Assembly: GCF_015155755.1 (NCBI RefSeq)
Contig: NZ_VWPI01000026.1
Location: 1-50,488, forward strand
Length of the DNA: 50,488 nucleotides
Origin: Komagataeibacter sp. FXV3
GTDB lineage: Bacteria; Pseudomonadota; Alphaproteobacteria; Acetobacterales; Acetobacteraceae
Direction: 5' to 3'
Shown: positions 2,350 to 43,930 of the stretch, one piece after another
Position numbering within the stretch: the stretch's first letter is position 1
Layout of the letters: every line of letters begins with the position of its first letter
Notes under the pieces: generated by a model
What the model saw: only the letters and a program-made list of their open reading frames with translations
What the model was told of the DNA's origin: nothing
Databases searched by the model: none
Made by a program: the position numbers and the translations under genes

Positions 2350-2410
2350 GAATAAAAGGTTTCGGGTGCCACCCTTTTTCATAAAAGGCGGCATCCAGGC
2401 CATCTTCACC
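2350..2410 (-). repeat. Interspersed intergenic repeat, partial copy 1
   Basis: On the minus strand it reads GGTGAAG, then a degenerate hairpin pair (GCCGCCTTTT and AAAAAGGGTGGC), then ACCCGAAACCTTTTATTC. This is the same order as the copies at 38702 and 40704. It lies between two convergent genes. Confidence 0.6.
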
Positions 2411-2460
2411 CCATGTCAGACAGTCCGTAAATGACAGGCACAGGGGTACCGGGCAGATTC

Positions 2461-4557
2461 TCAGTGAATGGCAACCTGTGCCGCATCGGATACGGGCAGC
2501 GGTATCGTAGGGATGGGGGGCTGTGCTGCAATTCGTGCCATGGGCTCACCCATCACAGGCAATAATCCGTCAAGTCGTGCCAGCAGGAAGTCGGCCCCCG
2601 CGCGCGACAGGTGCTGTGGGTCAACATAAAACGGGTTGTCCCCGTTGCGGAATTTGCATCCGGCAGGGGAACATAACCCGTCAGCCAGCGCGAAATAGCT
2701 GACGTCCTGCCTGTCTTCCACCGCATGGCGCACGACAGTCGCGACGGGTTGGGCAGGCACGTTGAGAAGGGTTGCTGGCGCGATTTCCCCGACTGCCCGG
2801 AATGACGGGTCCAGCATCTGCTCGGCATGCTGGCGCATGGGCATGAAGGCGGTCACCGCTTCCTTGGCGGGATCAAAGCGGAACTGGGGTACGTCCCCCA
2901 GCACGACGACATGCTTGTGCGCATTGACCAGTACCTGCGTTGTATTGCGTAACGCGATATCCAGCCGGACAAGGCTTGTGGCTACGCCATGGTCCACCAT
3001 GTCCTGCGGGTCAGCATAGGCATCCCGCCCGGCATCCCCGGCAAAGGGTGCGGCCCAGTAACCTGCCAGCACCACGGTCTGGACATGCGGGTCATGCATC
3101 ACGGCGGCAAAGGCCTGCGCATTATACTGCGCGCATTGCATGGCATGGCCGGGATGGGTGGGCATGAGTCGCGTGGTCCCCAGCAGGGGCGGGCATGAGG
3201 ATTTCGTAAACTGCACGAAATCAAAACCGGCCCGGTCCGCCATATGCGACAGGGATGCGGCCAGTGCGGATGCATGACTGTCCCCCAGCAGGGCGATGCG
3301 CGGGCGTCCCGTATCATGCACGCAGCGTGACGACAGGTTCAGGCTGGTAACCCCGTAATTGGCCAGGCAGGGTTCGCCCCGCCCTTCCGCCAGAACCCGT
3401 TCGGCAAAGGTCAGGGCCGGGTCAAAACGCCGGGACAGGCCATTGGATACATAGACCACCGCCAGCATGCTGACAGCCAGCGCAAGGCTGCCCGCGTACC
3501 GTGTCACAACGACAGGGGCGCTGCCGCTTCCGCGCCGGAATGGCTGTTCGATATAGCGCCATGACAGCGCGGCTGGCGCCAGTGATACGATCCCGGCACC
3601 CGCAAGTAGCAGCGGCGATGGCGCGCGTGCCGAACACAGCCAGATGAACGCCATAAGCGGCCAGTGCCACAGATACCATGAATAGGATATGCGACCGATC
3701 CATATGAATGGCCGCGTGGACAGGATGGCGCGGTTGACAAAACTGCCATCCGAAAGCAGCAGTGCCAGCGTGCCGCCAACCGGCAGGAGGGCGGCCAGAC
3801 CGGGAAAGGGGGTATGTTCATCAAAAATGAATATCGATAGCCCGACAAGAAAAAAACCCGTCCAACCAATGAAATGATTGACGGGACGGGGAAAGGTTAA
3901 AGCATAGTTCGATTTCGCTACGGCAAGGAACGTGCCTGCGCCCATTTCCCACGCTCGCGTGGGCAGCAGGTAGAATACGGCGGCGGGCCACCGACCCAGC
4001 CCGAACTGCGCCACGCACAGTGACCCAAGGCATAGCGCCCCGATCACGCACAGTACAATGACATGCCGCAAGCGGCCGATTGCAAGTAAAAGCAGGGGAA
4101 AAAACAGGTAGAACTGTTCCTCCACTCCCAGCGACCATGTCATGAGGAACGGGTTGAGATGGGCATCGGGGGAAAAATAACTGATCTGTTTCCAGAACAG
4201 TATATTGGACCACCCAAGTAATGCGCTTATCGCCCCCAGACTGGTCTGGCGTAATTCCGCCGGGCTGGAAAACAGCAGCCCCGCCAGCATGACTGCGGTG
4301 ATGATGAGCATGAGGGCCGGCAGGATACGCCGGGCGCGCCGGGCGTAAAACCCGACAAAGCTGAAGGTTCCCAGCCGGATATCCCTGTAGACGATGCCAC
4401 CGATCAGGAAGCCGGAAATAACAAAGAAAATATCCACGCCAACAAATCCCGACTGTACAGGATAGATGCTGGCATGAAACAGAACGACAGCCGTTACCGC
4501 GATTGCGCGCAGGCCATCAATATCGCGCCGGTAATTGGCGTGCAGATTCAGGCTCAT
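2461..4557 (-). CDS. Acyltransferase 3 (OafA/YrhL type) with C-terminal SGNH domain
   Basis: A 698-residue inner-membrane protein. Residues 1-380 carry the acyltransferase-3 core with about ten hydrophobic helices: RDIDGLRAIAV (11-21), the motif His28, FFVISGFL, and SLGVEEQFYLFFP (142-154). The C-terminal third is a periplasmic SGNH domain with GDSHAS (Ser427) and a late DPQHLS motif carrying the Asp/His pair. Family members O-acetylate or acylate cell-surface polysaccharide, lipopolysaccharide or peptidoglycan using cytoplasmic acyl-CoA. The target here is unknown; exopolysaccharide is a reasonable guess for this group. The frame extends upstream to a GTG at 4620, but ATG 4557 begins where family similarity starts and has GGTGA at suitable spacing. 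It stands alone, divergent from the esterase. Confidence 0.9.
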   Translation of the reverse strand: MSLNLHANYRRDIDGLRAIAVTAVVLFHASIYPVQSGFVGVDIFFVISGFLIGGIVYRDIRLGTFSFVGFYARRARRILPALMLIITAVMLAGLLFSSPAELRQTSLGAISALLGWSNILFWKQISYFSPDAHLNPFLMTWSLGVEEQFYLFFPLLLLAIGRLRHVIVLCVIGALCLGSLCVAQFGLGRWPAAVFYLLPTRAWEMGAGTFLAVAKSNYALTFPRPVNHFIGWTGFFLVGLSIFIFDEHTPFPGLAALLPVGGTLALLLSDGSFVNRAILSTRPFIWIGRISYSWYLWHWPLMAFIWLCSARAPSPLLLAGAGIVSLAPAALSWRYIEQPFRRGSGSAPVVVTRYAGSLALAVSMLAVVYVSNGLSRRFDPALTFAERVLAEGRGEPCLANYGVTSLNLSSRCVHDTGRPRIALLGDSHASALAASLSHMADRAGFDFVQFTKSSCPPLLGTTRLMPTHPGHAMQCAQYNAQAFAAVMHDPHVQTVVLAGYWAAPFAGDAGRDAYADPQDMVDHGVATSLVRLDIALRNTTQVLVNAHKHVVVLGDVPQFRFDPAKEAVTAFMPMRQHAEQMLDPSFRAVGEIAPATLLNVPAQPVATVVRHAVEDRQDVSYFALADGLCSPAGCKFRNGDNPFYVDPQHLSRAGADFLLARLDGLLPVMGEPMARIAAQPPIPTIPLPVSDAAQVAIH

Positions 4558-4703
4558 TGGGGAGATCACCCTATAGGAAGCTGCGTGAAACAGATTGAGG
4601 GTGACCTTGCGATCCCACACAATTTGTCAACGTGAATAAAATGTAAAGAGTGGTGCCGGTTTCATTTGCTGTATCATTTCTTTACAAATAAAAGGGACTG
4701 TGC

Positions 4704-4717
4704 CTGATCTGCATCAA
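4704..4717. promoter_or_regulatory. Near-perfect FNR-type box
   Basis: CTGAT-CTGC-ATCAA differs by one base from TTGAT-N4-ATCAA. It lies between the divergent acyltransferase (start 4557) and esterase (start 4851) genes, 140 bases before the esterase start, and could serve either. Sequence match only. Confidence 0.35.
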
Positions 4718-4850
4718 GATGCAGTGCAGCAGGCAGGCGTTGCGGCCATGCGCATGTGACCCACCGCACAGAATTATGAAAGGCGGGAATTACCCGCTCC
4801 CCCTAATATGGCCCGGATATTTCAGGAAAAGAACCGGAGCCTACGACCCC

Positions 4851-5633
4851 ATGCTGCTCAACACCATCGAACTTGGCCCCGACAACGGTGACCTGTCCCT
4901 GCCACCCGTCGTCTTCCTGCATGGACTGTTCGGGCGGGCGCGCAATTTCGGGTTTTTTCAGCGCCGTATCGCAGCAACCCGTCGCACGCTGGCGCTGGAC
5001 CTGCGCAATCATGGCGCAAGCCCGCATGGTCCGATGGACTACCCGACCCTTGCCGCTGATGTATGCGAAACACTGGCCGCCCATGACGCATTGCCCGCCA
5101 CCGTGGTGGGACATTCGATGGGGGGAAAGACCGCGATGATGCTGGCGCTCAGCTTTCCTGCCGAGGTCCATTCGCTGATGGTGGTGGACATAGCTCCCAG
5201 CGAGGGTGGTTTTTCACAGTCCCATGAACTGGCCCGCAGGCTGGCTGAACTTCCGCTGCCTGATTTTCTTGATCGTGCCGGGGCGGAAGCGTGGCTGGGT
5301 CAGGTGATTGCCGAAAAGCCCGTGCGTGATCTCATGCTGATGAATCTCGACCTGGGGGAAAAGCCACGCTGGACCATCGGTCTGAAGGACATTGCGGCGT
5401 CCATGCCGGCCATCATTGACTGGCCCGACGTGCTGCCCTGCACCCGTTATGACGGCCCAACCCTGTTTGTGGCCGGTGGACATTCACATTACATCCAGCC
5501 CGACAATTATCCCGTCATGCGCAGGCTGTTCCCGCATTACCGGCTGGAAACCATACCGGATGCCGGGCACTGGGTGCATGCGCAGGCACCGCAGGCGTTT
5601 CTGGCCGCGCTGGAACGTTTCCTGCAGATCTGA
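4851..5633 (+). CDS. YbfF-like alpha/beta-hydrolase (esterase)
   Basis: A 260-residue cytoplasmic alpha/beta-hydrolase. It has the oxyanion motif HGLFG (24-28), the nucleophile elbow GHSMGG (Ser89), Asp113 in VVDIAPS and the catalytic His240 in AGHWVHA. Length and triad spacing match the YbfF acyl-ester hydrolase family, which acts on short and medium acyl esters including acyl-CoA-type substrates. The open frame begins upstream at 4719, but those 44 codons show no similarity, and ATG 4851 has GGAG about ten bases upstream. A one-mismatch FNR-type box lies at 4704-4717. The lipoprotein gene follows on the opposite strand after 14 bases, so the two are convergent. The natural substrate is not evident. 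Confidence 0.88.
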   Translation: MLLNTIELGPDNGDLSLPPVVFLHGLFGRARNFGFFQRRIAATRRTLALDLRNHGASPHGPMDYPTLAADVCETLAAHDALPATVVGHSMGGKTAMMLALSFPAEVHSLMVVDIAPSEGGFSQSHELARRLAELPLPDFLDRAGAEAWLGQVIAEKPVRDLMLMNLDLGEKPRWTIGLKDIAASMPAIIDWPDVLPCTRYDGPTLFVAGGHSHYIQPDNYPVMRRLFPHYRLETIPDAGHWVHAQAPQAFLAALERFLQI

Positions 5634-5647
5634 ATGGCGCACTGTAT

Positions 5648-5806
5648 TCAGTGATCGGTGTGGGGGCCACGGCTCCAGTGCTGGTTGGTGTTGCGGTACT
5701 CCATTGCCGTGCCTTCATCACGATAGGGATGGGGATGTTTGTGGCCATGGCAGCCTGCGGCGGGCAGGACGATAAGGACGGTTAAAATCCTGATGATGTG
5801 AAGCAT
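5648..5806 (-). CDS. Small lipoprotein, 52 residues
   Basis: ATG 5806 is preceded by a near-ideal CAGGAGG seven bases upstream. The product starts MLHIIRILTVLIVLPAAGC: a short hydrophobic signal ending in a lipobox (PAAGC), giving a lipidated Cys19. The mature part is only 34 residues, rich in His (HGHKHPHPYRD) and polar residues, and ends at TGA 5648. The combination of ribosome site, lipobox and stop before the convergent esterase gene supports a real gene, although I recognise no family. The His-rich N-terminus could bind metal, which is inference only. No partner gene is obvious; the methyltransferase gene upstream on the same strand lies 74 bases away. Confidence 0.7.
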   Translation of the reverse strand: MLHIIRILTVLIVLPAAGCHGHKHPHPYRDEGTAMEYRNTNQHWSRGPHTDH

Positions 5807-5879
5807 CGCAACCTCCTGCGGATGCGGCCTGAACGTCCGTATGGTCGGGAAGTTTTGTCATACGGCCTGCCGGCCTGCA

Positions 5880-6557
5880 TCATGTGGCGTGGGTAGGGTC
5901 GTCCCGGAAGCCTGCCTCCCGGCGCGGCTTCATGATCCATACGCTTTCCGTTGCTGGACAGACCCCCTTCAGGCCGCCCGGCACGGCCCTGTGCGCCACA
6001 CAGTCAAGGATAAACGTATCACCGTAATAATGCCGCAGTGCATTTTCATCGACCGAAAATGGCGGCCCCGCCTTGCGTGACTGGTCATATTCCATACTGA
6101 CCAGAAGTTCAGGCGCAGCATTGGTGATGCTGACAAGGTGCCGGGCATAGGCCACGCGGATGGGGGCGGGCAGGGCGATCAGCGCCGCACGGTCATAGAC
6201 GGCGTCAACATGACCCAGTGCTGCCTGCGTCAGGTTGAAAATGTCGCCTGTCCAGACGCACAGGTGTCCTGCCTCGTACCGCACCAATGGGCCGACAGGT
6301 GAAATGCGTGGCGTAAGCCCCAGTTCGGAAAAAAGCCCCGTTACGGCAATCGGGCTCAGTTCAATGCCCGCAACCTGACAGCCGTGTTCAAGCAGCCAGT
6401 GAATATCACGGCTTTTGCCGCATAACGGTACAAAGACCCGTGCGCCGTCAGGCAGGCTCAGGGCCCCGAAATGATCGGTCAGCAGGGGATTGGGCCGTGG
6501 TTCGTGAAAGCCGATTTCATTACGCTGCCATTTGCCGTGCCAGAAGGTTTTATCCAT
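5880..6557 (-). CDS. tpm: Thiopurine S-methyltransferase (TPMT) family protein
   Basis: A 225-residue SAM-dependent methyltransferase. The start MDKTFWHGKWQRNEIGFH is typical of bacterial TPMT. The SAM-binding region FVPLCGKSRDIHWLLEHG follows at about 42-60, and then DAVYDRAALIALP. Bacterial members methylate thiopurines and also selenium and tellurium species, giving metalloid resistance in some hosts; the physiological substrate is rarely known. ATG 6557 is chosen because similarity begins there; a TTG six codons earlier is possible, and GAGG lies about 13 bases upstream. It is transcribed toward the small lipoprotein gene and could be cotranscribed with it. Confidence 0.9.
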   Translation of the reverse strand: MDKTFWHGKWQRNEIGFHEPRPNPLLTDHFGALSLPDGARVFVPLCGKSRDIHWLLEHGCQVAGIELSPIAVTGLFSELGLTPRISPVGPLVRYEAGHLCVWTGDIFNLTQAALGHVDAVYDRAALIALPAPIRVAYARHLVSITNAAPELLVSMEYDQSRKAGPPFSVDENALRHYYGDTFILDCVAHRAVPGGLKGVCPATESVWIMKPRREAGFRDDPTHAT

Positions 6558-6724
6558 CGCGTCGTGTGCCCTCAACCCGCTTCATATCCACAATACAGCG
6601 GCCACAATACTGCTATTCCCACCGGTGCGAAAGACAAAGGCCCCGTAACCCGTGCCGGGTTGCGCCAGTGGGGTAATTATGGTTTCCACACACCGTCAAC
6701 CCTGCGTTCAGAACTGATGGATCG

Positions 6725-7762
6725 GTGCGGATACACAACAGGAATATATGGTATCAATTCTGTCTGGTATTTCTGGCTACGATCGGGACAGTTGGCGGGT
6801 GTCTGTATCTGTTCGTGGTACTGGTTGATCCGTGGGGCGGGCTGCCCCTGTCATTGCCGCTGCACCGGTTGCCGGTGACCAGCAACGCGCGCTTTACCAT
6901 GCCCATGCTGGCACAAAGGCCAGGGTTTGATTCCGTCATGCTGGGCACATCAACGGGCCGTCTGATACGGCCTGCGGTCATGGATGGTCCATTCGGGGCG
7001 CATTTCCTGAATATGGCGATGAACAATGCCCAGCCCCATGAGCAGTACCGCCTGCTGCTTGAATTCATGCATTACCATCCCGCCCCGAAGGTCGTGATGG
7101 TCGATATAGACCGTTCATGGTGCCTGTATGGTCCCAAACAGGTGCCGCTGAACCCGGAGCCGTGGCCTGACTGGATCTATCAGCAATCCCCATGGATGGG
7201 TTACCTGCACATGGCCAACCTGTATGCACTGCAGGAAGCCGGTAATGAATTCATGCTGCAGGTCGGGCTGCGCCATGAACATTACGGGGAAGACGGCTAC
7301 ACCAGTTTCGTGGGGCCAGATGCCAGCTATACCCGTGCGCGCGTTGACAGGATGTTTGCCCAGTGGGGGCCGGACCATATGCCGCCGCCGCCCGATCCCG
7401 TGGCGCCCGCCCCGGCCATGCAGGTGTATCTGCCGCTGATCCTGCATGCCGTGCCGGATACGACATTACGTATCATCTGGTTTCCGCCGGTGCAGGCCAT
7501 CCGGCATAACCCGCAGGGGTCGATGTATGACGCCATGTTCAGTGCCTGCCACCGCCATGTGGCGTCCGTGACCGCAGGCATGCCCAATACGCTGGTGATT
7601 GATTTTGATATTCCGGGCCCGATCATCAATGATCGTGACATGTTCTGGGACCCGATCCATTACCGGCTCATGACAGCGGACCGTATCATGAAAGATATCA
7701 TTACGGCGTTTCATGACCGGGCGTACCAGTCTGCGGACTATACTGTCATATCGGGCCCATAG
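6725..7762 (+). CDS. Membrane-anchored SGNH-like protein of unknown function
   Basis: A 345-residue protein with one N-terminal membrane anchor (about residues 10-35), then an extracytoplasmic domain. It has a VMLGTSTGRL block (near 75), where SGNH hydrolases carry the GDS-like nucleophile, and NMAMNNAQPHEQYR after it. A late DPIHYRLMTADRIM segment (about 300-313) is where SGNH enzymes carry the Asp/His pair. Similar unnamed proteins occur widely in alphaproteobacteria, but I know no assigned function. It could be an acyl-handling hydrolase for envelope polysaccharide. The start is GTG 6725 with a weak GGA upstream. A hairpin at 7787-7804 separates it from the polyol module. Coding is secure; function is not. 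Confidence 0.7.
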   Translation: MRIHNRNIWYQFCLVFLATIGTVGGCLYLFVVLVDPWGGLPLSLPLHRLPVTSNARFTMPMLAQRPGFDSVMLGTSTGRLIRPAVMDGPFGAHFLNMAMNNAQPHEQYRLLLEFMHYHPAPKVVMVDIDRSWCLYGPKQVPLNPEPWPDWIYQQSPWMGYLHMANLYALQEAGNEFMLQVGLRHEHYGEDGYTSFVGPDASYTRARVDRMFAQWGPDHMPPPPDPVAPAPAMQVYLPLILHAVPDTTLRIIWFPPVQAIRHNPQGSMYDAMFSACHRHVASVTAGMPNTLVIDFDIPGPIINDRDMFWDPIHYRLMTADRIMKDIITAFHDRAYQSADYTVISGP

Positions 7763-7786
7763 GGACCGGCCGGGCAGGACGCTGCG

Positions 7787-7804
7787 CGTCACGAATGCGT
7801 GACG
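7787..7804 (+). terminator. Hairpin after the SGNH-like gene
   Basis: CGTCACG at 7787-7793 pairs with CGTGACG at 7798-7804 around a four-base loop, 25 bases after the stop. No U-rich tail, so termination strength is uncertain. Confidence 0.4.
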
Positions 7805-7810
7805 TTATGC

Positions 7811-7860
7811 CATTTTCTGGCGGAAATGCACGGATGTCAAAAAAGTATCATTTTCCGGCA
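7811..7860 (+). promoter_or_regulatory. Direct repeat upstream of the polyol operon (candidate AraC site)
   Basis: CATTTTCTGGCG at 7811-7822 recurs as CATTTTCCGGCA at 7849-7860, 38 bases apart on the same face and about 90 bases before the dehydrogenase start. AraC-family activators often bind direct repeats, and an AraC gene ends this operon. Assignment is inference. Confidence 0.35.
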
Positions 7861-7951
7861 AAAGATGGGCTAGACGCGTCATGGCCTGATCTTTTCATAT
7901 GACTTCGCCAAAAACAAAAAGAAGGGGCGCCCGAAGGGCGTCAGGCAATAA

Positions 7952-9007
7952 ATGGCGGAAGCTCTGGTCCTGGAACGCCAAGGCGTTCTTTCCATCCGTG
8001 ATATCGACCTGCCACAGGAACTGGGGCCTGATGACGTGCGCATCAGGATCCATACAGTCGGGATCTGTGGCAGCGATGTCCATTACTATACACACGGGCG
8101 CATCGGTCCCTTTGTCGTCAATGACCCGATGGTGCTGGGGCATGAAGCGGCCGGTACGGTTATTGAAACCGGGTCGCGCGTCAAAAATCTGAAAATCGGT
8201 GATCGTGTCTGCATGGAGCCGGGCATTCCCGATCCCATATCGCGGGCGTCGCGCATGGGGATCTACAATGTCGACCCCGCCGTGACGTTCTGGGCAACGC
8301 CCCCCGTCCATGGTTGCCTGACGCCCACGGTGGTCCATCCGGCATCCTTTACCTATCGCCTGCCCGATAACGTGTCCTTTGGTGAAGGGGCAATGGTCGA
8401 ACCCTTCGCCATTGGTGTGCAGGCCGCGGTCAAGGCTGCGATCAAACCCGGTGATACCTGCCTGGTCACCGGGTGCGGGCCGATCGGGCTCATGACCGCA
8501 CTGGCTGCGCTGGCGTCCGGGGCGGGGGTGGTGTTCATATCCGACCTGGCCGCGCCGAAACTGGAAATAGCCGGTCGTTATGACGGAATTGAACCGATCA
8601 ATGTCCGTGATGAAAAGCCGCGTGATGTCATATCCCGCCATCTCGGCACTGACTGGGGCGCGGATGTGGTGTTTGAGGCCAGCGGCTTTGCCGGTGCGTA
8701 TGACGATGTCCTGTCCTGTGTGCGCCCGGGCGGGACGGTGGTGTTCGTGGGAATGCCGGTGGAAAAGGTGCCCTTTGACATGGTCGCCGCGCAGGCGAAG
8801 GAAATCCGCATGGAAACGGTTTTTCGCTATGCCAATGTGTATGAACGCGCCATTGCCCTGATCGCGTCGGGCAAGGTGGACCTCAAACCGCTTATTTCAG
8901 AAACGTTTGCATTCACACAGGGCGTTGCGGCGTTTGAACGTGCGGCGTCGGCATGTCCTGCGGATGTAAAGCTGCAGATCACGATGCCGGGGGTGGCCCC
9001 CACCTGA
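7952..9007 (+). CDS. Zinc-dependent polyol (xylitol/L-iditol-type) dehydrogenase
   Basis: A 351-residue medium-chain dehydrogenase of the sorbitol/xylitol dehydrogenase group. Catalytic zinc ligands are Cys39 ([13 protein letters not shown]) and His64-Glu65 (GHEAAG), with Glu150 in MVEPFAIGV. The nucleotide fold has GCGPIG (174-179), and Asp198 at the end of the next strand favours NAD over NADP. The loop that normally holds four structural-zinc cysteines (about 90-112) has none; it reads [17 protein letters not shown]. Some yeast xylitol dehydrogenases also lack that zinc. It would oxidise a pentitol or hexitol to a ketose in the cytoplasm. It is first in an operon with a polyol permease (78 bases) and an AraC regulator. 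Confidence 0.87.
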
Positions 9008-9015
9008 CCGCCTGC

Positions 9016-9030
9016 GTGGCGTTACGCCAC
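9016..9030 (+). other. Intercistronic hairpin
   Basis: GTGGCG (9016-9021) and CGCCAC (9025-9030) pair around TTA between the dehydrogenase and permease genes. With no T-run, this may attenuate or stabilise the upstream message rather than end it. Confidence 0.35.
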
Positions 9031-9085
9031 TTACGGCAGGTGGCATGCAGGCTGCCTGCCCAATAAAAACAAAAGGCATGAAAAA

Positions 9086-13209: not shown

Positions 13210-13233
13210 GTTACCCCCTTGTGTCAGCGGCCA

Positions 13234-13303
13234 TTTGAAAACAATTTATCCATAAAAGACAATAAAGGTTTCCGGCTAATGTTCTTGTGTCAAAAAGGCG
13301 ACG
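13234..13303 (-). repeat. Interspersed intergenic repeat, partial copy 2
   Basis: TTTGAAAACAA, then CAATAAAGGTTTCCGG, then CAAAAAGGCG follow the same order as the left half of the element at 13331, so the two lie in tandem. It sits just upstream of the cupin gene. Confidence 0.6.
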
Positions 13304-13330
13304 TTGTCGGAAACAGCCTGTCATCATAAG

Positions 13331-13502
13331 AGACTGTTTGAAAACAACCAATTGATAAAAAACAATAAAAGTTTTTGGATGCTGCCTTTTTTCAAAAAGG
13401 CGGCGTTCTTTTGAAGCTTTTTTCAAAAATCGTTGGAAAACGCCACCTTTTTGAAGAGAAGAAAGGTGGCACCCGGAAACTTTTATTGTTTTCAAACAGT
13501 CT
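13331..13502. repeat. 172-bp inverted element with perfect 17-bp terminal repeats (MITE-like)
   Basis: AGACTGTTTGAAAACAA at 13331-13347 is exactly mirrored by TTGTTTTCAAACAGTCT at 13486-13502. Pairing continues inward: CAATAAAAGTTT at the left and AAACTTTTATTG at the right. The middle holds the GCCTTTTTTCAAAAAGGC and GCCACCTTTTT/GAAAGGTGGC hairpins found in the other copies. It looks like two half-elements head to head. It encodes nothing and lies between a cupin gene and a Crp/Fnr gene. No clear target duplication is seen. Confidence 0.75.
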
Positions 13503-26128: not shown

Positions 26129-26375
26129 TCGCCCGTGGTAACTGTTGCGGGGTGCCTGTATCCTGTGGGCCTGCGCCAACCTGATGGCACCCCGCACCTG
26201 ATGACATGATGATAACGGATATCTTTGTACGGATCGTATGCGTCCGGTGCCGTGATTTCAGGCTGCTGGAAAGTGGGGCATGGCGAATAAAAAACCTGTT
26301 TCAGTATTGTGAATACGGAGCAGGGAAACACGTCATAAATGTCTGCCTGAAAGGTCAGGTCAGGAAACATCCGTG

Positions 26376-26467
26376 GATCATAAGAAGTTTCTGGTGAAGG
26401 TTTTTTTTAAAAAGCTTTGAAATATTCATCATTTTTGAAAAAGACAGCGCCCGGAACTTTCATGAAC
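26376..26467 (+). repeat. Interspersed intergenic repeat, copy 3
   Basis: GATCATAAGAAGTTTCTGGTGAAGG, split here as GATCATAAGAAG and TTTCTGGTGAAGG, is followed by a T-run, AAAAAGCTTTG, a decayed hairpin pair and CCCGGAACTTTCATGAA. This is the same order as the copies at 38702 and 40427. Confidence 0.65.
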
Positions 26468-26501
26468 GCGTTACTTTCAGGCAGCGTTCAGGTATGAAAT
26501 G

Positions 26502-27810: not shown

Positions 27811-27812
27811 GA

Positions 27813-34407: not shown

Positions 34408-34452
34408 TCAGGCCATTGTGACTGACCGGGGGCGTGCAGGGAGAACAAAGGC

Positions 34453-37270: not shown

Positions 37271-37272
37271 AT

Positions 37273-37315
37273 TGGACGGTAGCGCGTTTTAATACTTGTT
37301 TCGTCCACTTTTTTT
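37273..37315 (+). terminator. Possible terminator after the DoxX-like gene
   Basis: TGGACG (37273-37278) pairs with CGTCCA (37302-37307) and is followed by a run of seven T (37309-37315). The loop is long (23 bases), so the fold is uncertain, but the T-run is in the right place. Confidence 0.45.
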
Positions 37316-37561
37316 CTATGGTCTCCTGGCACCCTTTCATGGCGCCAGCTTGGATTATCTATCACATGCGCGCGAGTTATTAATTGTTATTTGTCTGCGC
37401 GCAAAAAACTGTAATAGAATGTTCTGTGCGATATGACATCGGTTCTATCGTATAATCTGAACTGAACGACGTCTTTATTTTCCCGATATGGATCGGTCTG
37501 GCCGAACATGAAGCGTCGTCAGGGGTTCAATAATAACATTGAGAATAAGGTAACCCTTGAA

Positions 37562-38041
37562 ATGAAGCATCTGCTTAAAGTCCTTGCGGTGCTGACGTCG
37601 TGCGCGACCCCCGCACTTGCGCAGCCGTCATCTTCCTCCACCGCGCCGCAGTTCAACATCACGACCGACGCGGCAATGGACATGGCCCATTATGCGGTTG
37701 GCCTGGCGGAAAACCGGCATCTCAAGCTTTGCATAGCGGTCGAGGACACGGATGGAAACCTGGTGGCCTTCATCCGCATGCAGGGTGCCTATGCCGGATG
37801 TGTGGAGGCCTCGATCGCGAAGGCAAAATCGGCGGCGCGGTTTGCCCGCAATACGATCGAGTTCTTTGACGCCGTGCGCACGCAGAACCTGCCCATCGGT
37901 TTTGTCCCCGGTATCCTGCCATCCGCAGGTGGTGCGGTTTTCAAGCAGGGTGATGTGGTCGTCGGCAGTATCGGCACTAGCGGCGACACCAATGAAAATG
38001 AACAGGCGCTGGTTGTCGATACGGCCAAGCATTTTCACTGA
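37562..38041 (+). CDS. Secreted GlcG/HbpS-family protein, first of a tandem pair
   Basis: A 159-residue exported protein. The signal peptide is about residues 1-20 (MKHLLKVLAVLTSCATPALA). The rest is one GlcG/HbpS domain: CIAVEDTDGNLVAFIRMQGA, then SIAKAKSAARFARNT and a Gly-rich GILPSAGGAVFKQGDVVVGS. The last part, IGTSGDTNENEQALVVDTAK, is typical. HbpS-like members bind heme or sense redox state; GlcG is an unassigned gene of the glycolate locus. Exported versions are frequent beside membrane dehydrogenases in acetic acid bacteria. An in-frame extension to 37508 is possible, but the signal peptide argues for ATG 37562. A second copy follows after 56 bases. Confidence 0.85.
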   Translation: MKHLLKVLAVLTSCATPALAQPSSSSTAPQFNITTDAAMDMAHYAVGLAENRHLKLCIAVEDTDGNLVAFIRMQGAYAGCVEASIAKAKSAARFARNTIEFFDAVRTQNLPIGFVPGILPSAGGAVFKQGDVVVGSIGTSGDTNENEQALVVDTAKHFH

Positions 38042-38097
38042 AACGGTCTTCAGCGTAAAAAAAACAGTATCCAGACAATCTTGCATCAGGATCTCCC

Positions 38098-38583
38098 ATG
38101 AAAATCAGACATATCGGGCCGCTGGCCATTCTGGCGTGCTTTCCTGCCTTTGGCGTGGCACACGCGGATGACGCCAAGTTGCTGACCCGCCCGCAACTCA
38201 GTAACGCCGGTGCGAAAAGCCTGCTGAATGCGGCCGAGGAGGAGGCGCGGCAGAAGGGCATGCAGGTCAGCATCGCAGTGGTGGATGCATCGGGCAGGCT
38301 GCTGGCCTTCACCCGCATGGATGATTCACAGACCGGAACGGACGAGACAGCCATCAAGAAAGCCCGCACAGCCGCGCTGTATCATTCACCAGGCAAGGTA
38401 CTGGCCCAGCGTATCAGCCAGAACCAGGCGTTTCTGGCGACATTGCCCGGTATTACGGCCGTGCCCGGATCGTGTCCGGTCATGAGTGGCAAATACCTGA
38501 TCGGGGCGGTTGGGGTCAGTGGCGCGACGGATGATCTGGATAATGCAGTCGCCACCGATACGGCAAACGGGTTCCATTCGTAG
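38098..38583 (+). CDS. Secreted GlcG/HbpS-family protein, second of a tandem pair
   Basis: A 161-residue exported protein with a signal peptide (1-23, MKIRHIGPLAILACFPAFGV then AHA) and a GlcG/HbpS domain: VSIAVVDASGRLLAFTRMDD, TAIKKARTAALYHSPG, GVSGATDDLDNAVATDTA. It is clearly related to the gene just upstream but diverged, so the pair is an old duplication or a heteromer. One Cys occurs in the mature part (GSCPVMSG). It is probably cotranscribed with the first copy; a perfect 14-bp stem at 38627-38670 ends the unit. Heme binding or a role in periplasmic redox chemistry is family-based inference. Confidence 0.85.
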   Translation: MKIRHIGPLAILACFPAFGVAHADDAKLLTRPQLSNAGAKSLLNAAEEEARQKGMQVSIAVVDASGRLLAFTRMDDSQTGTDETAIKKARTAALYHSPGKVLAQRISQNQAFLATLPGITAVPGSCPVMSGKYLIGAVGVSGATDDLDNAVATDTANGFHS

Positions 38584-38626
38584 GGGATGGTCCGAGCCGG
38601 ACAGTCCCGGCAATTCCAGACAGTAA

Positions 38627-38670
38627 AAAATACAGGCCATTCTCCGTTACAGGAATATGGCCTGTATTTT
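38627..38670. terminator. Perfect 14-bp stem-loop terminator
   Basis: AAAATACAGGCCAT (38627-38640) and ATGGCCTGTATTTT (38657-38670) pair across a 16-base loop. A-run before and T-run after make it bidirectional in form. It ends the GlcG pair and could stop read-through from the OprB side. Confidence 0.7.
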
Positions 38671-38701
38671 CTTGCATACTGTCCGAAAATTCGGTTTTGC
38701 G

Positions 38702-38823
38702 GCATCATGAAGACGTTTTTTGGTGAAGATTTTTTTAAGAAACATTCAAAGAATGCCGCCTTTTTGAAAAAAGGCGGCACCCAAAAACTTTCATTTTTAT
38801 TATCAAGATCTGTTTTGAAATTT
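38702..38823 (+). repeat. Interspersed intergenic repeat, near full-length copy 4
   Basis: Order of parts: GCATCATGAAGACG, GGTGAAG, a T-run, then GCCGCCTTTTT/AAAAAAGGCGGC (a perfect hairpin), ACCCAAAAACTTTC, and CTGTTTTGAAA at the end. The copy at 40704 is its reverse complement over about 120 bases. Confidence 0.75.
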
Positions 38824-38825
38824 CC

Positions 38826-40199
38826 CTAGAAGGTAAAGCCTGTTTTCATACCAATAACCGTGACCGTGCTGCGCTGGGTATAACCGCCGGGATTAACCCA
38901 GAACTGGACGTTTGGTTCGATATAGGCCCAAGGGGTAAACTGGATGGTGTAATCTGTTTCAACGGCAAATTCCGAATTCCGTCGTGGCCCCTTTTTACCT
39001 GCCTGATACCATTCCAATGTCGCAAGGCGCGAATTGACATGATTGGTGCCAACCGCAAGTGTCACGGCGTCATGCCTGCGCCATGGTAGTCCGAAATAGC
39101 GCAGGCTGCCCGTTACCTGTGATGAGATGGGGCTTGTTTCCCTGTCAACCATGGTCAGCGTGACATAGGCGGTCAGACCCTGCACGACCACCGCATCCTG
39201 TCCGGGCTTTTCGGTAAAGGTACCCGTCAACTGCTGCTGGAACCACAGATACCCGCCATGGGAACTGCCCCGTTCCAGCATTGGCAACCCGCCGGTAACA
39301 GCAGGTTGCCCATTGGTCGCCAGTAAAACATCCGGTGCGCTGGCCGTATTGATCCACCCGCCAATGCGGTACACCCCCGGATAATGGTGCGATCCCACAT
39401 GAAGGCGCAGCCCGGTTTCGAAAGGCAGCAGCGCGCCGGTTGCCCCATGGACGTAACCAAGGAAAAACTTGTTATCCAGGTTGCGCATGTTCTGTTCATA
39501 AGCGCCCCCCTGCAGGTACCACAGGGGACTGTTGTATTTAAGGTAACCACCCCAGGTGCTGACAGGCCAGTTCAGCCAGCGATTACCATCCATGTTGCCC
39601 GTTGTCGCGCCGCAGAAATAATTGATCATTGTCAGGCAGGGCACATTGTCAAAATCAGCACCGGTTGGCAGGCGGCCGATCTTGAAACTGAAGTGGTTGC
39701 CCAGTTTCTGGTTATACCACAATCCGGTCAGTCGAGTGGTCTGTCCACGTCCCCATACTTCCTGTGGCTGTTGCAGGGTATACAGGCCCGCCCGTGTAAT
39801 CAGGTTGCTGCCCCAGCGGCTGGTAAAGGTGAAATTGAAGGTCGCCCCTTTCCATTTCACCAGTTTTTCCGCATCGATATCCATAATCGCCGCGATCTGG
39901 TTGGTTTCGGCCGCAGTGCGCCGGTCGCCGCCTGTCGCATTTCCGGCGGTTTCGTTTGTCCATGCCGCCGCCAGGTCTATCCCTATGTCACGCAGATAGG
40001 TTCTGTACCCACCCCAATCTCCTGTCATGGTTGAAGCCGGGTGCTGGGCGCTGTTACGCAGCGCATAACTGGCATCATTGCCCTGGCTTCCGTTTACAAC
40101 GCTATTGGCGGGCGCGTCATGCGCGCCGATCACCACATACATGGAAAAACCGAAATACAATATCGCGAATTTTCCACGTCGATGCGTAAAATATTTCAT
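38826..40199 (-). CDS. Carbohydrate-selective porin, OprB family
   Basis: A 457-residue outer-membrane protein. An N-terminal signal region (about 1-33) precedes a 16-strand-type barrel with OprB features: TMTGDWGGYRTYLRDIGIDL (57-76), FNFTFTSRWGSNL, IGRLPTGADFD and WVNPGGY. It ends in a C-terminal Phe (GFTF), the usual outer-membrane sorting residue. OprB porins admit glucose and other monosaccharides into the periplasm, which fits the periplasmic sugar oxidation genes nearby. It is convergent with the GlcG pair. Flanking intergenic DNA on both sides carries repeat copies. Base composition is more AT-rich than the neighbouring dehydratase. Substrate range is not predictable. Confidence 0.9.
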   Translation of the reverse strand: MKYFTHRRGKFAILYFGFSMYVVIGAHDAPANSVVNGSQGNDASYALRNSAQHPASTMTGDWGGYRTYLRDIGIDLAAAWTNETAGNATGGDRRTAAETNQIAAIMDIDAEKLVKWKGATFNFTFTSRWGSNLITRAGLYTLQQPQEVWGRGQTTRLTGLWYNQKLGNHFSFKIGRLPTGADFDNVPCLTMINYFCGATTGNMDGNRWLNWPVSTWGGYLKYNSPLWYLQGGAYEQNMRNLDNKFFLGYVHGATGALLPFETGLRLHVGSHHYPGVYRIGGWINTASAPDVLLATNGQPAVTGGLPMLERGSSHGGYLWFQQQLTGTFTEKPGQDAVVVQGLTAYVTLTMVDRETSPISSQVTGSLRYFGLPWRRHDAVTLAVGTNHVNSRLATLEWYQAGKKGPRRNSEFAVETDYTIQFTPWAYIEPNVQFWVNPGGYTQRSTVTVIGMKTGFTF

Positions 40200-40426
40200 T
40201 GTACGGCCACTGGTATATTATTGGTTTTATTTGTGTGGCGTTTAAACGTTTTTATGAGGGCGCGGTTTTTTTATTTCGTATATTAATTTATCGTGCGCTA
40301 TGTGGCATAACTTTCCACTTGTATTTTCTTGGGAACATTATTTGCACAATTGCGTTCCTGTGATCAGGTCAGGCGGTTTTGGGGAAAAGTTTTCCTGCCA
40401 TGAATCCATCCAGGCAACGGGGCACG

Positions 40427-40530
40427 GATCATGCAAGGTTTTTGGTGAAGCTTTTTTCAAAAAGCTTCATGACCTGTCGTTTCCTTGAAAAAACAGGGCA
40501 CACAAGAATTCCATTATTTTTACTAAAAAT
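40427..40530 (+). repeat. Interspersed intergenic repeat, copy 5
   Basis: GATCATGCAAGG, then GGTGAAGC and the palindrome AAGCTTTTTTCAAAAAGCTT, then CCTTGAAAAAACAGGG and AAGAATTCCATTA. Same order as the copies at 26376 and 38702; the second hairpin is decayed. Confidence 0.65.
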
Positions 40531-40703
40531 TATTGCAAATTTTTTCAATGCATACCAGTCATTTAACTCGTTATTTTATAAGAACGATATAAGGCCGGAT
40601 GCCCGGCATGTGTAAACATGCAACCCATGGCACCGCGCCAGATGCAGAAAAAATCGCGATGGTCCAGCCATTGGAATATGCAGGTCCAAACAACACGAAT
40701 GAC

Positions 40704-40826
40704 AGACTGTTTGAAAACAGAATTATTGATGGAAAAGATAGAAGTTTCTGGGTGACCCTTTTCCAGGAAGGCAGCATGTAACGAAGCTTTCTGAAAAAAA
40801 CTTCACCACAAACGTCTTTATGATGC
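40704..40826 (-). repeat. Interspersed intergenic repeat, near full-length copy 6
   Basis: Starts AGACTGTTTGAAAACAG, like the terminal repeat of the 13331 element, then GAAGTTTCTGGGTGACCC, GAAGCTTTC, CTTCACCA, and ends AAACGTCTTTATGATGC. It is the reverse complement layout of the copy at 38702. Confidence 0.7.
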
Positions 40827-40876
40827 GCACGATATCGCAGCGACCTCCAATGACTGTTTCCGGCATGCGCAATGGG

Positions 40877-41650
40877 TCAGTGACGGGGCGGGAGGTAGTC
40901 CGCCATCCATCGGCATTCATCCGACAGGTCCATGGCTGCGTCTTCATCCAGTACGAATGTGCAATCAGGATGGAAATGAAGTGCCGAGGCACTGGTCATG
41001 GCCGAAATCGCCCCTTCAATAACGCGGGTGACGATCGCCGCCTTGCCGGGGCCTGTCGCCAGCAGGACCGCGCGCCGGGTTTCCAGAATGGTCCCGACAC
41101 CAACAGTCAGCGCATGCTGCGGCACATCATCCGGGCAGTCGCCAAACATTTCGGCATTCTGGACACGCGTGGCGGGGGCAAGCCTGACACGGCGCGTGCG
41201 CGATGCGAAGGAGGAAAGGGGTTCGTTAAAACCGATATGGCCGGTGTGACCTATCCCCAGCAGTTGCAGGTCAATACCACCTGCGGCACGGATGGCGGTT
41301 TCGTATCGTGCGCATGCCGCCGTAACATCATCGGTATCACCGGGGGGCAGATGCGTCCGCGTGGGCGGAATATCCAGATGACGGAACAGGTGATGCTGCA
41401 TATAGGCACGGTATGACTGCGCGGTCCGGGCAACCGGCCCGCAATATTCATCCAGGTTGAACGTCGTGCAGCCTGCAAGATTGACCGGCCTGTCGTGAAT
41501 GCGGCGGACAAGGTGGCCATAGACCCGTTCCATCGTGCGCCCGGTTGCAAGGCCCAGTACGGCTGCCGGGTTGCGCGCGCAGCACATGTACAGCATGTCC
41601 GCCACATGGGCGCAGGCCGTGTCCTGATCCGGTACGATGACAAGTTTCAT
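40877..41650 (-). CDS. nagB: Glucosamine-6-phosphate deaminase
   Basis: A 257-residue enzyme converting glucosamine 6-phosphate to fructose 6-phosphate and ammonia. Family marks: LATGRTMERVYGHLV (phosphate-binding loop, about 34-48), FNLDEYCG with the catalytic Asp, and GIGHTGHIGFNEP with catalytic His and Glu. Length is near the usual 245-266. ATG 41650 overlaps the anmK stop as ATGA and has GGGAGG close upstream, so translation is coupled. It is the last gene of the minus-strand salvage operon (serine hydrolase, murQ, anmK, nagB). No nagA (GlcNAc-6-phosphate deacetylase) lies in the window, so that step must be encoded elsewhere. Confidence 0.93.
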   Translation of the reverse strand: MKLVIVPDQDTACAHVADMLYMCCARNPAAVLGLATGRTMERVYGHLVRRIHDRPVNLAGCTTFNLDEYCGPVARTAQSYRAYMQHHLFRHLDIPPTRTHLPPGDTDDVTAACARYETAIRAAGGIDLQLLGIGHTGHIGFNEPLSSFASRTRRVRLAPATRVQNAEMFGDCPDDVPQHALTVGVGTILETRRAVLLATGPGKAAIVTRVIEGAISAMTSASALHFHPDCTFVLDEDAAMDLSDECRWMADYLPPRH

Positions 41651-42777
41651 GAAGACCTCCCGCCGGTTGCATGGATCCATGATGGCACAGGCATAAGGCC
41701 CGCACAGGTCAGGCGGCCACCGGACAGGCCATCCGGCCCGCCCGTTATGGTGGACGCTGATAACGGCAGGCCGCGTACGCTGCGTGCGGCCAGAAAACCG
41801 AAACATTGCGCCTCCAGCGCATCCCCGTTCCAGCCAAGGTGGTCCACGCCCACCACCGGGGCGCCCAGCGCCGTCTGCAATCCCTGCATCAGGACAGGGT
41901 TATGCCGCCCTCCGCCACAGACATACCAGCGTGCGGGCCGGACGGGCAGGGGCATGCGCCGTACGGCTTCGATGGTAAAGGCGGCCAGTGTCGCCGCCCC
42001 ATCGGCCGGGGTGCAGGCGGCCACCCGGTCAAGGGCCGTGGCAAAACTCTGCCGATCCAGCGATTTGGGGGCAAGGCGGGCAAAATAGGGATCAGCCAGC
42101 AACTGTTCCACAATGGCCCGGTTGACCGTGCCCGCACGCGCCAGTGCGCCATCAACGTCGCAGGCCGTGCCGGTATGGCGCATCGCCCAGTCATCCAGCA
42201 GGGCATTGCCCGGGCCGGTGTCACAGGCATGGATCGTATTATCGGCATCAATCAACGTGACATTCGCAACGCCACCGATATTCAGAACGGCAACCGGCCC
42301 CGGCACATCATGCAGCAGGGCTGCGTGGAACCACGGCACCAGTGGCGCGCCTTCGCCGCCTGCCGCCACGTCGGCGCTGCGGAAATCATGGATGACAGCC
42401 AGTCCGGTCGCGCGTGACAGAAGTTCCGCATCACCAATCTGCCATGTCTGGTGGCGTTGTGGTGCATGCAGGATGGTCTGGCCATGGAACCCGATCAGGT
42501 CGATATCCGGCACCCGGGCCTGCAACTGTCGCACTGCGTCAATGTGATGGCGGGTTATCGCGTGTTCGACCGCTTTCAGTTCGGGATCATCAGGGGACAG
42601 GGTGGGCGCATGGTCCAGAAGCCTGCGCGCGCGCTGGCGCAGGGCCGCCGTGTAAGGCAGGCTGATATCCGGCCCGAACCCCGCGATCCGTTCACCATCG
42701 GTATGGATGATGGCTGCGTCCACACCATCAAGTGACGTGCCACTCATAAGGCCGATGACCGTAAGCATAGGCTTCAT
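41647..42777 (-). CDS. anmK: Anhydro-N-acetylmuramic acid kinase
   Basis: A 376-residue kinase that opens the 1,6-anhydro ring of anhydro-MurNAc and phosphorylates it to MurNAc 6-phosphate, using ATP. The N-terminal IGLMSGTSLDGVDA (about 5-18) is diagnostic. Others are IGFHGQTILHAPQ, VAVLNIGGVANVTLI, and the nucleotide-side DTGPGNALLDDW and VCGGGRHNPVLM. ATG 42777 has GGAGG seven bases upstream; an upstream extension to 42801 is unlikely. It lies 168 bases after murQ, the next enzyme in the same pathway, and overlaps nagB by four bases. A truncated repeat copy sits in the gap to murQ. Confidence 0.94.
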   Translation of the reverse strand: MKPMLTVIGLMSGTSLDGVDAAIIHTDGERIAGFGPDISLPYTAALRQRARRLLDHAPTLSPDDPELKAVEHAITRHHIDAVRQLQARVPDIDLIGFHGQTILHAPQRHQTWQIGDAELLSRATGLAVIHDFRSADVAAGGEGAPLVPWFHAALLHDVPGPVAVLNIGGVANVTLIDADNTIHACDTGPGNALLDDWAMRHTGTACDVDGALARAGTVNRAIVEQLLADPYFARLAPKSLDRQSFATALDRVAACTPADGAATLAAFTIEAVRRMPLPVRPARWYVCGGGRHNPVLMQGLQTALGAPVVGVDHLGWNGDALEAQCFGFLAARSVRGLPLSASTITGGPDGLSGGRLTCAGLMPVPSWIHATGGRSS

Positions 42778-42900
42778 GCCTGTTCCTCCCGCATGCAGCA
42801 TTTTACCACGACATCATAAAGAACAGGGCGACGGGACAAAAACGTGACGTCCGGCACCTGTCCATTATGCCGCGTGTATCCGGGTGGTCCGGGGCTGCCT

Positions 42901-42939
42901 GTCAAAAAGGCGGCATCCGGAAACGTTTATTTTTCGGAC
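42901..42939 (+). repeat. Interspersed intergenic repeat, truncated copy 7
   Basis: CAAAAAGGCGGCATCCGGAA followed by ACGTTTATTTTT matches the right-hand part of the family only. It lies between murQ and anmK, inside the operon. Confidence 0.5.
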
Positions 42940-42945
42940 AATGTT

Positions 42946-43878
42946 TTACGGGGCGGCAGGGGGGCTGTCGTCCTGCCCGAGAACTGAACGCAGGTTGCCG
43001 CCATGCGCCGCAAGCTGTGCCTCGACCTGATCGGCGGGAATGCCCGAACAGATCATGACGGCCCGTTTGACATTGAACCCCGTTGCCTCCAGCGCCTGCT
43101 GCGCCTCCTGTTCGGTACTGCCGGTCAGGTTGCGGACCATGCGGCATGCCCTGTCCCGCAGCTTGGCATTGACGACCCGCATGTCCACCATCTGCCCGCG
43201 ATAGGCATGGCCCATACGGATCATGAGCGTTGTGGAAATCAGGTTCAGGGTGGCTTTCTGTGCCGTGCCGGCCTTCAGTCGCGTGGAACCGGAAATGACT
43301 TCCGGCCCCGTTACCACCGCAATGCCCTGTTCCGCCACGTCCAGCAACCTGCCGCCGCGATTGCACGCAATGCCTATGGTCAGGCTGCCTGCCGCGCGCG
43401 CAGCCGCAATCGCGGCACAGGTATAGGGCGTGGACCCACTGGCCGCGATGCCCAGCACCACGTCATCGGGACCGGGATTGTGGGCCAGTATGTCCGCGCG
43501 CGCCACGTCCTCGCGGTCCTCGGCCCCTTCCGCCGCCTGATACACGGCGTCCTGCCCGCCTGCCAGCAGCAGCACAAGCCGCCCCGGTTCCCAGCCGAAG
43601 GTGGGCAGCAGTTCCACCCCATCCTGCATGCCGATCCGCCCGGACGTGCCCGCGCCGACATAGAACAGCCGTCCCCCCGCCAGAAGCCGGGGCAGGGCGC
43701 TGCCCACCGCGCGTTCCAGTTCCGCTGTCGCGGCGCGGACGGCGGCGATGGCGCTCATCTGTGATTCCACCAGTGCATCCAGCACGGAGGCGACAGGCCA
43801 GACATCCACATCCGCGTAGCGGGGGTCCTGTCCTTCTGTCGCGATGATAGGGGTGGGCGTGCTGCTGTTCGGGGTCAT
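42946..43878 (-). CDS. murQ: N-acetylmuramic acid 6-phosphate etherase
   Basis: A 310-residue SIS-domain lyase that splits the lactyl ether of MurNAc 6-phosphate to give GlcNAc 6-phosphate and D-lactate. The active-site block is YVGAGTSGRIGMQDGVELLP (73-92), with Glu89 at the catalytic position. A second conserved acid cluster is EGAEDRED near 117-124. IAASGSTPYTC and STRLKAGTAQKATLNLIST follow, then a helical C-terminal UBA-like segment. ATG 43878 has CAGG five bases upstream. It sits 95 bases after the serine hydrolase gene on the same strand. The gap holds a truncated repeat copy, as does the gap to anmK. Confidence 0.94.
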   Translation of the reverse strand: MTPNSSTPTPIIATEGQDPRYADVDVWPVASVLDALVESQMSAIAAVRAATAELERAVGSALPRLLAGGRLFYVGAGTSGRIGMQDGVELLPTFGWEPGRLVLLLAGGQDAVYQAAEGAEDREDVARADILAHNPGPDDVVLGIAASGSTPYTCAAIAAARAAGSLTIGIACNRGGRLLDVAEQGIAVVTGPEVISGSTRLKAGTAQKATLNLISTTLMIRMGHAYRGQMVDMRVVNAKLRDRACRMVRNLTGSTEQEAQQALEATGFNVKRAVMICSGIPADQVEAQLAAHGGNLRSVLGQDDSPPAAP

Positions 43879-43904
43879 GTAACCTGACTTATCTGCAAAT
43901 GAGG

Positions 43905-43930
43905 GAAAAAGCTTCACCAGAAACTTTCAT
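43905..43930 (-). repeat. Interspersed intergenic repeat, truncated copy 8
   Basis: On the minus strand ATGAAAGTTTCTGGTGAAGC followed by TTTTTC matches the left-hand part of the family (compare 26380). It lies between the serine hydrolase gene and murQ. Confidence 0.5.

What the first reader, a model, noticed from the sequence alone, without database searches (positions are those of the whole stretch)
2350..43930. A family of about nine related intergenic repeats with nested hairpins
Copies at 2350, 13234, 13331, 26376, 38702, 40427, 40704, 42901 and 43905 share an ordered set of blocks: CATCAT..AAGACGTTT at one end, GGTGAAGCTTTTTTCAAAAAGCTTC-like hairpin, GCCGCCTTTTT/AAAAAGGCGGC hairpin, ACCCGGAAACTTTTATT, and CTGTTTTCAAACAGTCT at the other end. 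Copies 38702-38823 and 40704-40826 are near full length (about 120 bases) in opposite orientation. All are intergenic, none encodes protein, and divergence ranges from clear to decayed. This is a density of roughly one per 5.5 kb. I do not recognise a named family. It may be a non-autonomous transposable element, a REP-like element, or a mobile transcription terminator.
Basis: seen in the sequence. Interest (0 to 1): 0.75.

Follow-up and report, generated by a model that had tools for sequence, protein, structure and literature searches.

The report
Mobile hairpin repeats at gene ends
The window carries nine copies of a short, mobile, hairpin-forming DNA repeat that is present in large numbers in vinegar bacteria, sits just behind the ends of genes and probably stops transcription there, while its sequence and direction seem to keep being replaced.

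Summary
All nine window copies match a profile built only from copies outside the window (the two weakest at E 4e-4 and 0.0045); 20 shuffles gave nothing. They belong to a large family: 55 places in 450 kb of this genome, and 19 of 19 held genomes of the genus carry it.

The complete unit is a 162-bp MITE: 15-bp ends GAGACTGTTTGAAAA and a 3-bp duplication in 9 of 9 copies with perfect ends, 8 of TNA form. This matches the IS1031 group of IS5-family elements. Its core folds as a stem bearing two hairpins.

64 of 74 scored copies lack one or both ends, yet keep the core just behind gene stops: 33 convergent, 21 tandem, 1 divergent, 0 in genes. The architecture, with different but complementary stems, recurs in other Acetobacteraceae genera. 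Best reading: two-way 3'-end/terminator elements, partly spread as MITEs. Termination is inferred.

Unexpected: at conserved sites the core is hardly more alike between species than two copies from different sites, and at some it lies flipped. The site is inherited; the content turns over.

The parts
2345..2411 (+). partial core (left arm and GCCGCC hairpin), decayed
   Evidence: E 9.6e-4; E 2.4e-6; convergent spacer
13229..13312 (+). left part of a copy, decayed
   Evidence: weak (13261-13343, E 4.8e-5)
13331..13502 (.). chimera of two left halves head to head, AGACTGTTTGAAAACA at both ends; outer triplets differ (TAA/GAA, no duplication)
26343..26485 (-). decayed copy with core; strand call weak (both strands score alike)
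   Evidence: (E 1.2e-7); convergent spacer
38681..38816 (-). best window copy: nearly complete core (38705-38795), GAAGC hairpin altered, both ends decayed, between convergent genes
   Evidence: E 1.8e-20; a core also lies in this spacer in G001 and G014
40417..40525 (-). core with intact GAAGC hairpin, GCCGCC hairpin decayed
   Evidence: E 1.9e-10; tandem spacer
40704..40826 (+). copy with intact left terminal repeat (AGACTGTTTGAAAA at 40704) and core; right end absent
   Evidence: E 2.3e-11
42900..42943 (.). fragment: one outer arm plus half a hairpin
   Evidence: E 3.6e-4; not reached by R2 at E<=1e-3
43903..43971 (+). fragment: half hairpin, right arm and decayed right end (TTTTCAGGCAG); spacer 95 bp here, 31-52 bp in 10 of 11 relatives, 164 bp in the eleventh
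   Evidence: (E 0.0045, weakest)

Best explanation
[quoted passage not shown] Shown: the complete unit is 162 bp, with 15-bp terminal repeats and a 3-bp TNA duplication; inferred from that, an IS5-family transposase of the IS1031 kind moves it in trans. Shown: many copies lack the ends but keep the core, an outer arm pair AAAGTTTTTGG/CCAAAAACTTT enclosing two hairpins, usually within tens of bases of a stop codon and most often between two convergent genes. Inferred: the core works on both strands as a transcription terminator or mRNA 3'-end stabiliser; each RNA would end in the closed stem followed by a U-rich stretch. Shown statistically, mechanism inferred: cores at inherited sites are overwritten by other copies or flipped in place, most simply by conversion or template switching, since the two outer arms are inverted repeats of each other.
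For: MITE: perfect ends give an identical 3-bp flank in 9 of 9 copies (TTA x5, TAA x2, TGA, ATA), all 162-163 bp; six of the nine are from K. swingsii, two from the own genome, one from a plasmid; duplications fade as the ends decay (90 end pairs in all). Own-genome IS L037 (897 bp, TSD TAA) and N. hansenii plasmid IS L249 (883 bp, TSD TAA) match the MITE's ends at 12 of 15 bases on each of the four ends and encode IS5-family transposases. PMC12016507 (passage) gives TNA and 3 bp for the IS1031 group. Presence/absence at syntenic spacers; a nearly intact copy with TAA duplication sits inside the remains of an older core in G014 (by eye).
3'-end function: 33 convergent, 21 tandem, 1 divergent, 0 of 55 in genes (convergent excess p 1.5e-15 against intergenic length); 33 of 61 convergent spacers hold one; in tandem spacers 19 of 21 lie nearer the upstream stop than the next start. 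12 of 15 syntenic convergent spacers hold one in at least one of up to 9 genomes, against 6 of 34 tandem and 3 of 16 divergent. Between copies at the same site stems differ at 98/829, loops/linkers 69/320, side arms 184/856 positions (14 pairs picked by hand from 28). Fold of L004: -53.5 kcal/mol, z -6.4. Other genera keep the architecture with different complementary stems.
Against: No transcript ends were available. A neutral reading, that insertions survive only behind genes, explains much of the position bias; counted per 3' gene end, convergent and tandem spacers may not differ (my rough estimate, not computed). Stems (10.9%) are no slower than gene ends (9.1%) and little slower than the outer spacer beyond the side arms (469/3879, 12.1%). 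Because core content turns over, same-site copies may not be strict descendants, so slow stems may reflect the family's make-up rather than selection at the site. The terminator scan flags 1 of the 4 cores in L197: a branched stem is not a canonical terminator. Within Komagataeibacter covariation is not clear once two antisense rows are removed (14 double changes against a shuffle mean of 9.0, maximum 17; paired cells 91.4% against 91.0%), and G-U-keeping changes are not in excess (72 against 106 breaking). In other genera convergent enrichment was not seen: 0 of 21 in g21, 1 of 7, 2 of 7 and 1 of 6 in g80, g34, g50; two g21 cores and one g34 core fell in predicted genes (weak gene calls). No IS with exactly the MITE's ends was found.
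Confidence: 0.58

Rival explanations
1. Purely selfish MITE: copies are tolerated only behind genes; the core is what the transposase or replication needs, and it has no host function.
For: MITE signature; divergent spacers nearly empty (1 of 55); position per 3' gene end could be neutral; stems little slower than the outer spacer.
Against: Copies without ends should no longer move in the usual way, yet keep the core; stems differ half as often as loops and side arms between same-site copies; several convergent sites hold a core in genomes of two clades about 80-88% identical in flanking DNA.
Confidence: 0.27
2. REP/REPIN-like elements: the unit is arm plus hairpin, spread as single-stranded DNA by a tyrosine (RAYT/Y1) transposase; full cores are inverted pairs.
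For: Many near-identical copies without the Komagataeibacter ends in g21, g34, g80 and g50; inside-out pairs in two Pseudoroseomonas cervicalis plasmids; convergent copies close to both stops are also reported for REPs (PMC3733652, one section read).
Against: 0 of 74 own copies carry GTAG near a core edge and 7 of 74 carry CGTC; complete Komagataeibacter copies have IS5-type ends and duplications. RAYT genes were not searched for.
Confidence: 0.2
3. Uptake-signal-like repeats: inverted pairs of a DNA uptake sequence, kept abundant by biased transformation and used as terminators.
For: Inverted pairs behind genes and content turnover; such terminators are mentioned in PMC2267715 (passage).
Against: The repeat unit is long and structured and differs between genera; terminal repeats and duplications are unexplained.
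Confidence: 0.03

Closest known systems
IS1031-group (IS5 family) MITEs
   Same: Terminal repeats of the GA..CTGTTTG..AA kind, 3-bp TNA duplication, IS5-family elements with similar ends and duplications in the same genomes
   Different: No IS with identical ends found; carries a branched-hairpin core that persists without the ends
REP / REPIN / BIME repeats
   Same: Many intergenic palindromes, close to 3' gene ends, often between convergent genes (PMC3733652); inverted pairs of arm plus hairpin
   Different: No GTAG tag and rarely CGTC; the complete form has DNA-transposon ends; RAYT link not tested
[quoted passage not shown]
   Same: Repeat family resembling terminators; such pneumococcal elements are reported to insert into one another (PMC10969869, passages)
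   Different: Unrelated host; here a branched two-hairpin structure, with model matches in 19 of 102 sampled genera of one family
Small hairpin-loop inversions of chloroplast genomes (recalled; search listing only)
   Same: A segment between short inverted arms lies flipped between relatives
   Different: Here in dispersed bacterial repeats whose content also turns over

Membership tests
MITE of the IS1031 group (IS5 family) | short non-coding element with terminal inverted repeats | tested here: met
   162-163 bp, 15-bp ends, 9 copies with perfect ends
MITE of the IS1031 group (IS5 family) | 3-bp TNA target duplication | tested here: met
   9 of 9 identical triplets, 8 TNA and one ATA
MITE of the IS1031 group (IS5 family) | autonomous partner with the same ends | tested here: inconclusive
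   related IS with 12 of 15 matching end bases, none identical; only the loci fetched were searched
MITE of the IS1031 group (IS5 family) | mobilised in trans | not testable with these tools
   needs a transposition assay
REP/RAYT | GTAG or CGTC tag at one end | tested here: not met
   GTAG 0 of 74, CGTC 7 of 74 near the core edges
REP/RAYT | intergenic, near 3' gene ends, convergent | tested here: met
   own genome; not seen as convergent in g21
REP/RAYT | associated tyrosine transposase gene | not tested
intrinsic terminator | hairpin followed directly by a U tract | tested here: inconclusive
   branched stem followed by a U-rich tail on both strands; scan flags 1 of 4 cores in L197
intrinsic terminator | transcripts end there | not testable with these tools
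   no RNA data
known Rfam family | covariance-model match at gathering score | tested here: not met
   0 matches in the window

The most novel reading that the evidence does not exclude
Acetobacteraceae share a family-wide class of structured, two-way 3'-end elements whose positions are inherited but whose sequence and orientation are continually overwritten from other copies or flipped in place: a genome-wide set of interchangeable terminator cassettes under concerted evolution, which one lineage has in addition packaged between IS1031-type ends as a MITE.
Probability: 0.35. Interest if true: 0.82.

Novelty: new variant of a known kind. Interest (0 to 1): 0.62.

Why it matters
If right, several hundred transcription ends in an industrial genus (cellulose and vinegar makers) come from a mobile element: a direct case of a transposon supplying 3'-end signals genome-wide. 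Terminators whose site is inherited while sequence and direction turn over would make it testable how short dispersed repeats are homogenised in bacteria. It also warns that these repeats may confuse short-read assembly and mutant calling in Komagataeibacter.

Tried and rejected
Covariation inside Komagataeibacter looked strong (34 double changes, 0 of 500 shuffles as high), but two of the 70 rows were antisense matches of copies already there. Without them (67 distinct rows) 14 double changes remain against a shuffle mean of 9.0, maximum 17. I do not claim it; the case for pairing rests on the different complementary stems of other genera.

RNAalifold's structure for alignment A2 found only one hairpin, probably because MAFFT misaligned the rest; model R2 uses a structure I gave. 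A G-U asymmetry test for one preferred RNA strand gave nothing. Autonomous IS with identical ends: none in the loci held. Phage records: no match. Rfam: none in the window. The weak matches in other genera were first suspected to be chance; reading them showed the same architecture. A g34 core had no match in the plasmid collection. Selection alone as the cause of content turnover was rejected by a rate argument of mine, not computed in a call.

Flank-type against core-orientation linkage: canonical in 9 of 10 copies with both ends, 12 of 27 with one, 19 of 37 with none. This fits flips but noise could give it too; I lean on it little. 19 of 93 unique copies were dropped there for low score, ambiguous orientation or short flanks.

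Not in print: nothing naming these repeats appeared in the listings, nor in the passages looked up in PMC6528568, PMC6559022, PMC13028821, PMC4686929, PMC12306157, PMC3733652, PMC10969869 and PMC2267715. The library holds CC-licensed papers only.
Full report
OBSERVATION. The nine places are real relatives. A profile made only from copies outside the window finds all of them, from E 6e-19 (38713-38796) to 0.0045 (43904-43930); 20 shuffles of the window give nothing at E <= 10. The two weakest, 42903-42933 and 43904-43930, are fragments. Covariance model R2 of the core (15 copies from this genome, 30 pairs) finds 98 strand-hits in the window plus 20 stretches of 20 kb of the same genome. I collapsed these by hand to 55 places in 450,488 bases (two of the 55 overlap in the chimeric copy at 13331-13502), about 440 per genome by extrapolation. 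A genome-wide run scored 150 of 1767 candidates, and all 150 have E < 2e-16.

ANATOMY. Complete copies are 162-163 bp: GAGACTGTTTGAAAA ... TTTTCAAACAGTCTC. Inside lies the core: an outer arm pair (AAAGTTTTTGG / CCAAAAACTTT) enclosing two hairpins, GCCGCC-T5/A5-GGCGGC and GAAGC-T5/A5-GCTTC. L004 folds to -53.5 kcal/mol as RNA, z -6.4, and z -6.8 as DNA. On both strands a U-rich stretch follows the closed stem (consensus).

MOBILITY. Of 90 end pairs in all loci held, the 9 with perfect ends all have identical 3-bp flanks: TTA five times, TAA twice, TGA, ATA; six of the nine are K. swingsii loci. The share falls with end decay: 1 of 2, 2 of 6, 1 of 5, 2 of 17, 4 of 11, 1 of 13, 1 of 11, 0 of 16 at 1 to 8 mismatches. 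The window's chimeric copy has none. IS elements with similar ends (12 of 15 bases on each end) and TAA duplications occur in the own genome (L037, 897 bp) and in an N. hansenii plasmid (L249, 883 bp); both encode IS5-family transposases. PMC12016507 (passage) states TNA and 3 bp for the IS1031 group. No IS with identical ends was found among the loci held. Of 74 scored own copies, 10 keep both ends, 27 one and 37 none (up to 4 mismatches in 14 allowed).

DISTRIBUTION. 19 of 19 held genomes of the genus carry the family, 46 to at least 150 matches each, with 150 candidates scored per genome. In Acetobacteraceae 50 of 347 genomes and 19 of 102 genera match at E <= 1e-6 (stricter filters). By equal contig lengths, G014 appears to be K. 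swingsii LMG 22125 and G018, G016 and G007 K. xylinus strains (my inference).

OTHER GENERA. Weaker matches in g21, g34, g80, g50 and g68 keep the architecture: same arms and T/A runs, but other complementary stem bases, for example CTCCC/GGGAG and GTTC/GAAC. Of 213 cores handled, 152 gave two hairpins, with 20 distinct perfectly paired 5-bp stems, a few of which are register shifts of others. Read by eye, the outer ends also change as pairs (AAYGGRT in g21, AATGAAT in g34, AATTAAC in g80). Of the 18 loci printed (2 of 20 were cut), one (L317, g68) had flanking matches resembling the Komagataeibacter ends; the others had only hairpin matches or none. In two Pseudoroseomonas cervicalis plasmids the arm-plus-hairpin units stand inside out around another hairpin, so the basic unit may be arm plus hairpin.

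POSITION. Of 55 places, 33 lie between convergent, 21 between tandem and 1 between divergent genes, and none lies mainly in a gene (home-made gene calls, 414 genes). Against intergenic length the convergent excess has p 1.5e-15. 33 of 61 convergent spacers hold one; 13 of the 33 copies have both stops within 40 bp; in tandem spacers 19 of 21 are nearer the upstream stop. NCBI-annotated plasmid hits, nine in all: five between convergent genes (H2, H3, H6, H7, H8; H6 and H7 look orthologous), two tandem (H1, H9), one overlapping a hypothetical gene (H5), one with no genes listed (H4). Against this, g21 cores were convergent in 0 of 21, g80 in 1 of 7, g34 in 2 of 7 and g50 in 1 of 6 (weak gene calls). 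The same convergent placement is in print for REPs (PMC3733652, one section read).

INHERITANCE AND TURNOVER. 65 own spacers of 25 bp or more were compared with up to 8 relatives. A core (25 bits or more) is present in at least one genome in 12 of 15 convergent, 6 of 34 tandem and 3 of 16 divergent spacers; genome-by-spacer cells 63 of 103, 16 of 234 and 7 of 117. Between copies at the same site, within clades, stems differ at 10.9%, loops/linkers 19.4%, side arms 20.2%, outer spacer 12.1% and gene ends 9.1% (28 overlapping pairs). In 14 pairs that I picked from these to overlap less: 98/829, 69/320 and 184/856, stems lower than arms in 13 of 14 and lower than loops in 12 of 14. Yet the inner core is hardly closer to its same-site counterpart than to copies elsewhere: within clades, same orientation, identity 0.846 against 0.837, mean rank 0.44 (0.5 is random), best match in 12 of 70 ordered comparisons; flipped, 0.823 against 0.830, rank 0.55, best in 1 of 26 (comparisons not independent). 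So slow stems may partly reflect the family's make-up rather than selection at the site.

FLIPS. Orientation differs between genomes at 9 of 17 sites with two or more scored cores. One of these (window 40142) holds two elements, and G014 at L196 7562 is a new insertion; others, such as G009 at L197 13604, may be independent insertions. Clear in-place cases by eye are L196 2785 (own against G014) and L196 14770 (G016 against G007 and G018), where flanks are collinear up to the outer arms. With flanking gene ends about 91% identical within clades, pure descent should leave shared changes; overwriting by other copies, flips or re-insertion is needed (my argument).

MECHANISM. Shown: MITE signature, 3'-end position, shared branched structure, content turnover. 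Inferred: two-way termination or 3'-end protection; conversion or template switching through the inverted arms. A neutral bias, insertions being harmless behind genes, remains the main rival.

VERDICT. A real, large and apparently undescribed repeat family (searches listed in Tried and rejected), of a known kind but with an unusual structure and mode of evolution.

Noticed in passing
L035:1069-1889, L034:1431-2251, L008 near 1577: Another IS5-family IS of about 821 bp with ends GGGTCTGTTGGGAATT occurs in at least two loci; one such end abuts a truncated MITE in L008, as if inserted into it.
   Followed up: partly
L031:1919-3162 (N. hansenii plasmid NZ_CP094849.1): A MITE with perfect ends and TAA duplication begins 15 bp behind an annotated IS630-family transposase gene.
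   Followed up: no
G014 ortholog of L196:7562-7762: A nearly intact MITE with TAA duplication is nested in the remains of an older core.
   Followed up: partly
orthologs of L196:14770-14862 in G016, G007, G018: About 1.2 kb of extra sequence with a second core at its far side separates the same convergent gene pair in these genomes.
   Followed up: no
orthologs of L197:13604-13810: In G016, G013, G007 and G018 the hairpin has different stem sequences that remain complementary (by eye).
   Followed up: no
L342 (g68): A core-like element with an extra hairpin between the two usual ones; several g68 matches are longer, about 135 bp.
   Followed up: no
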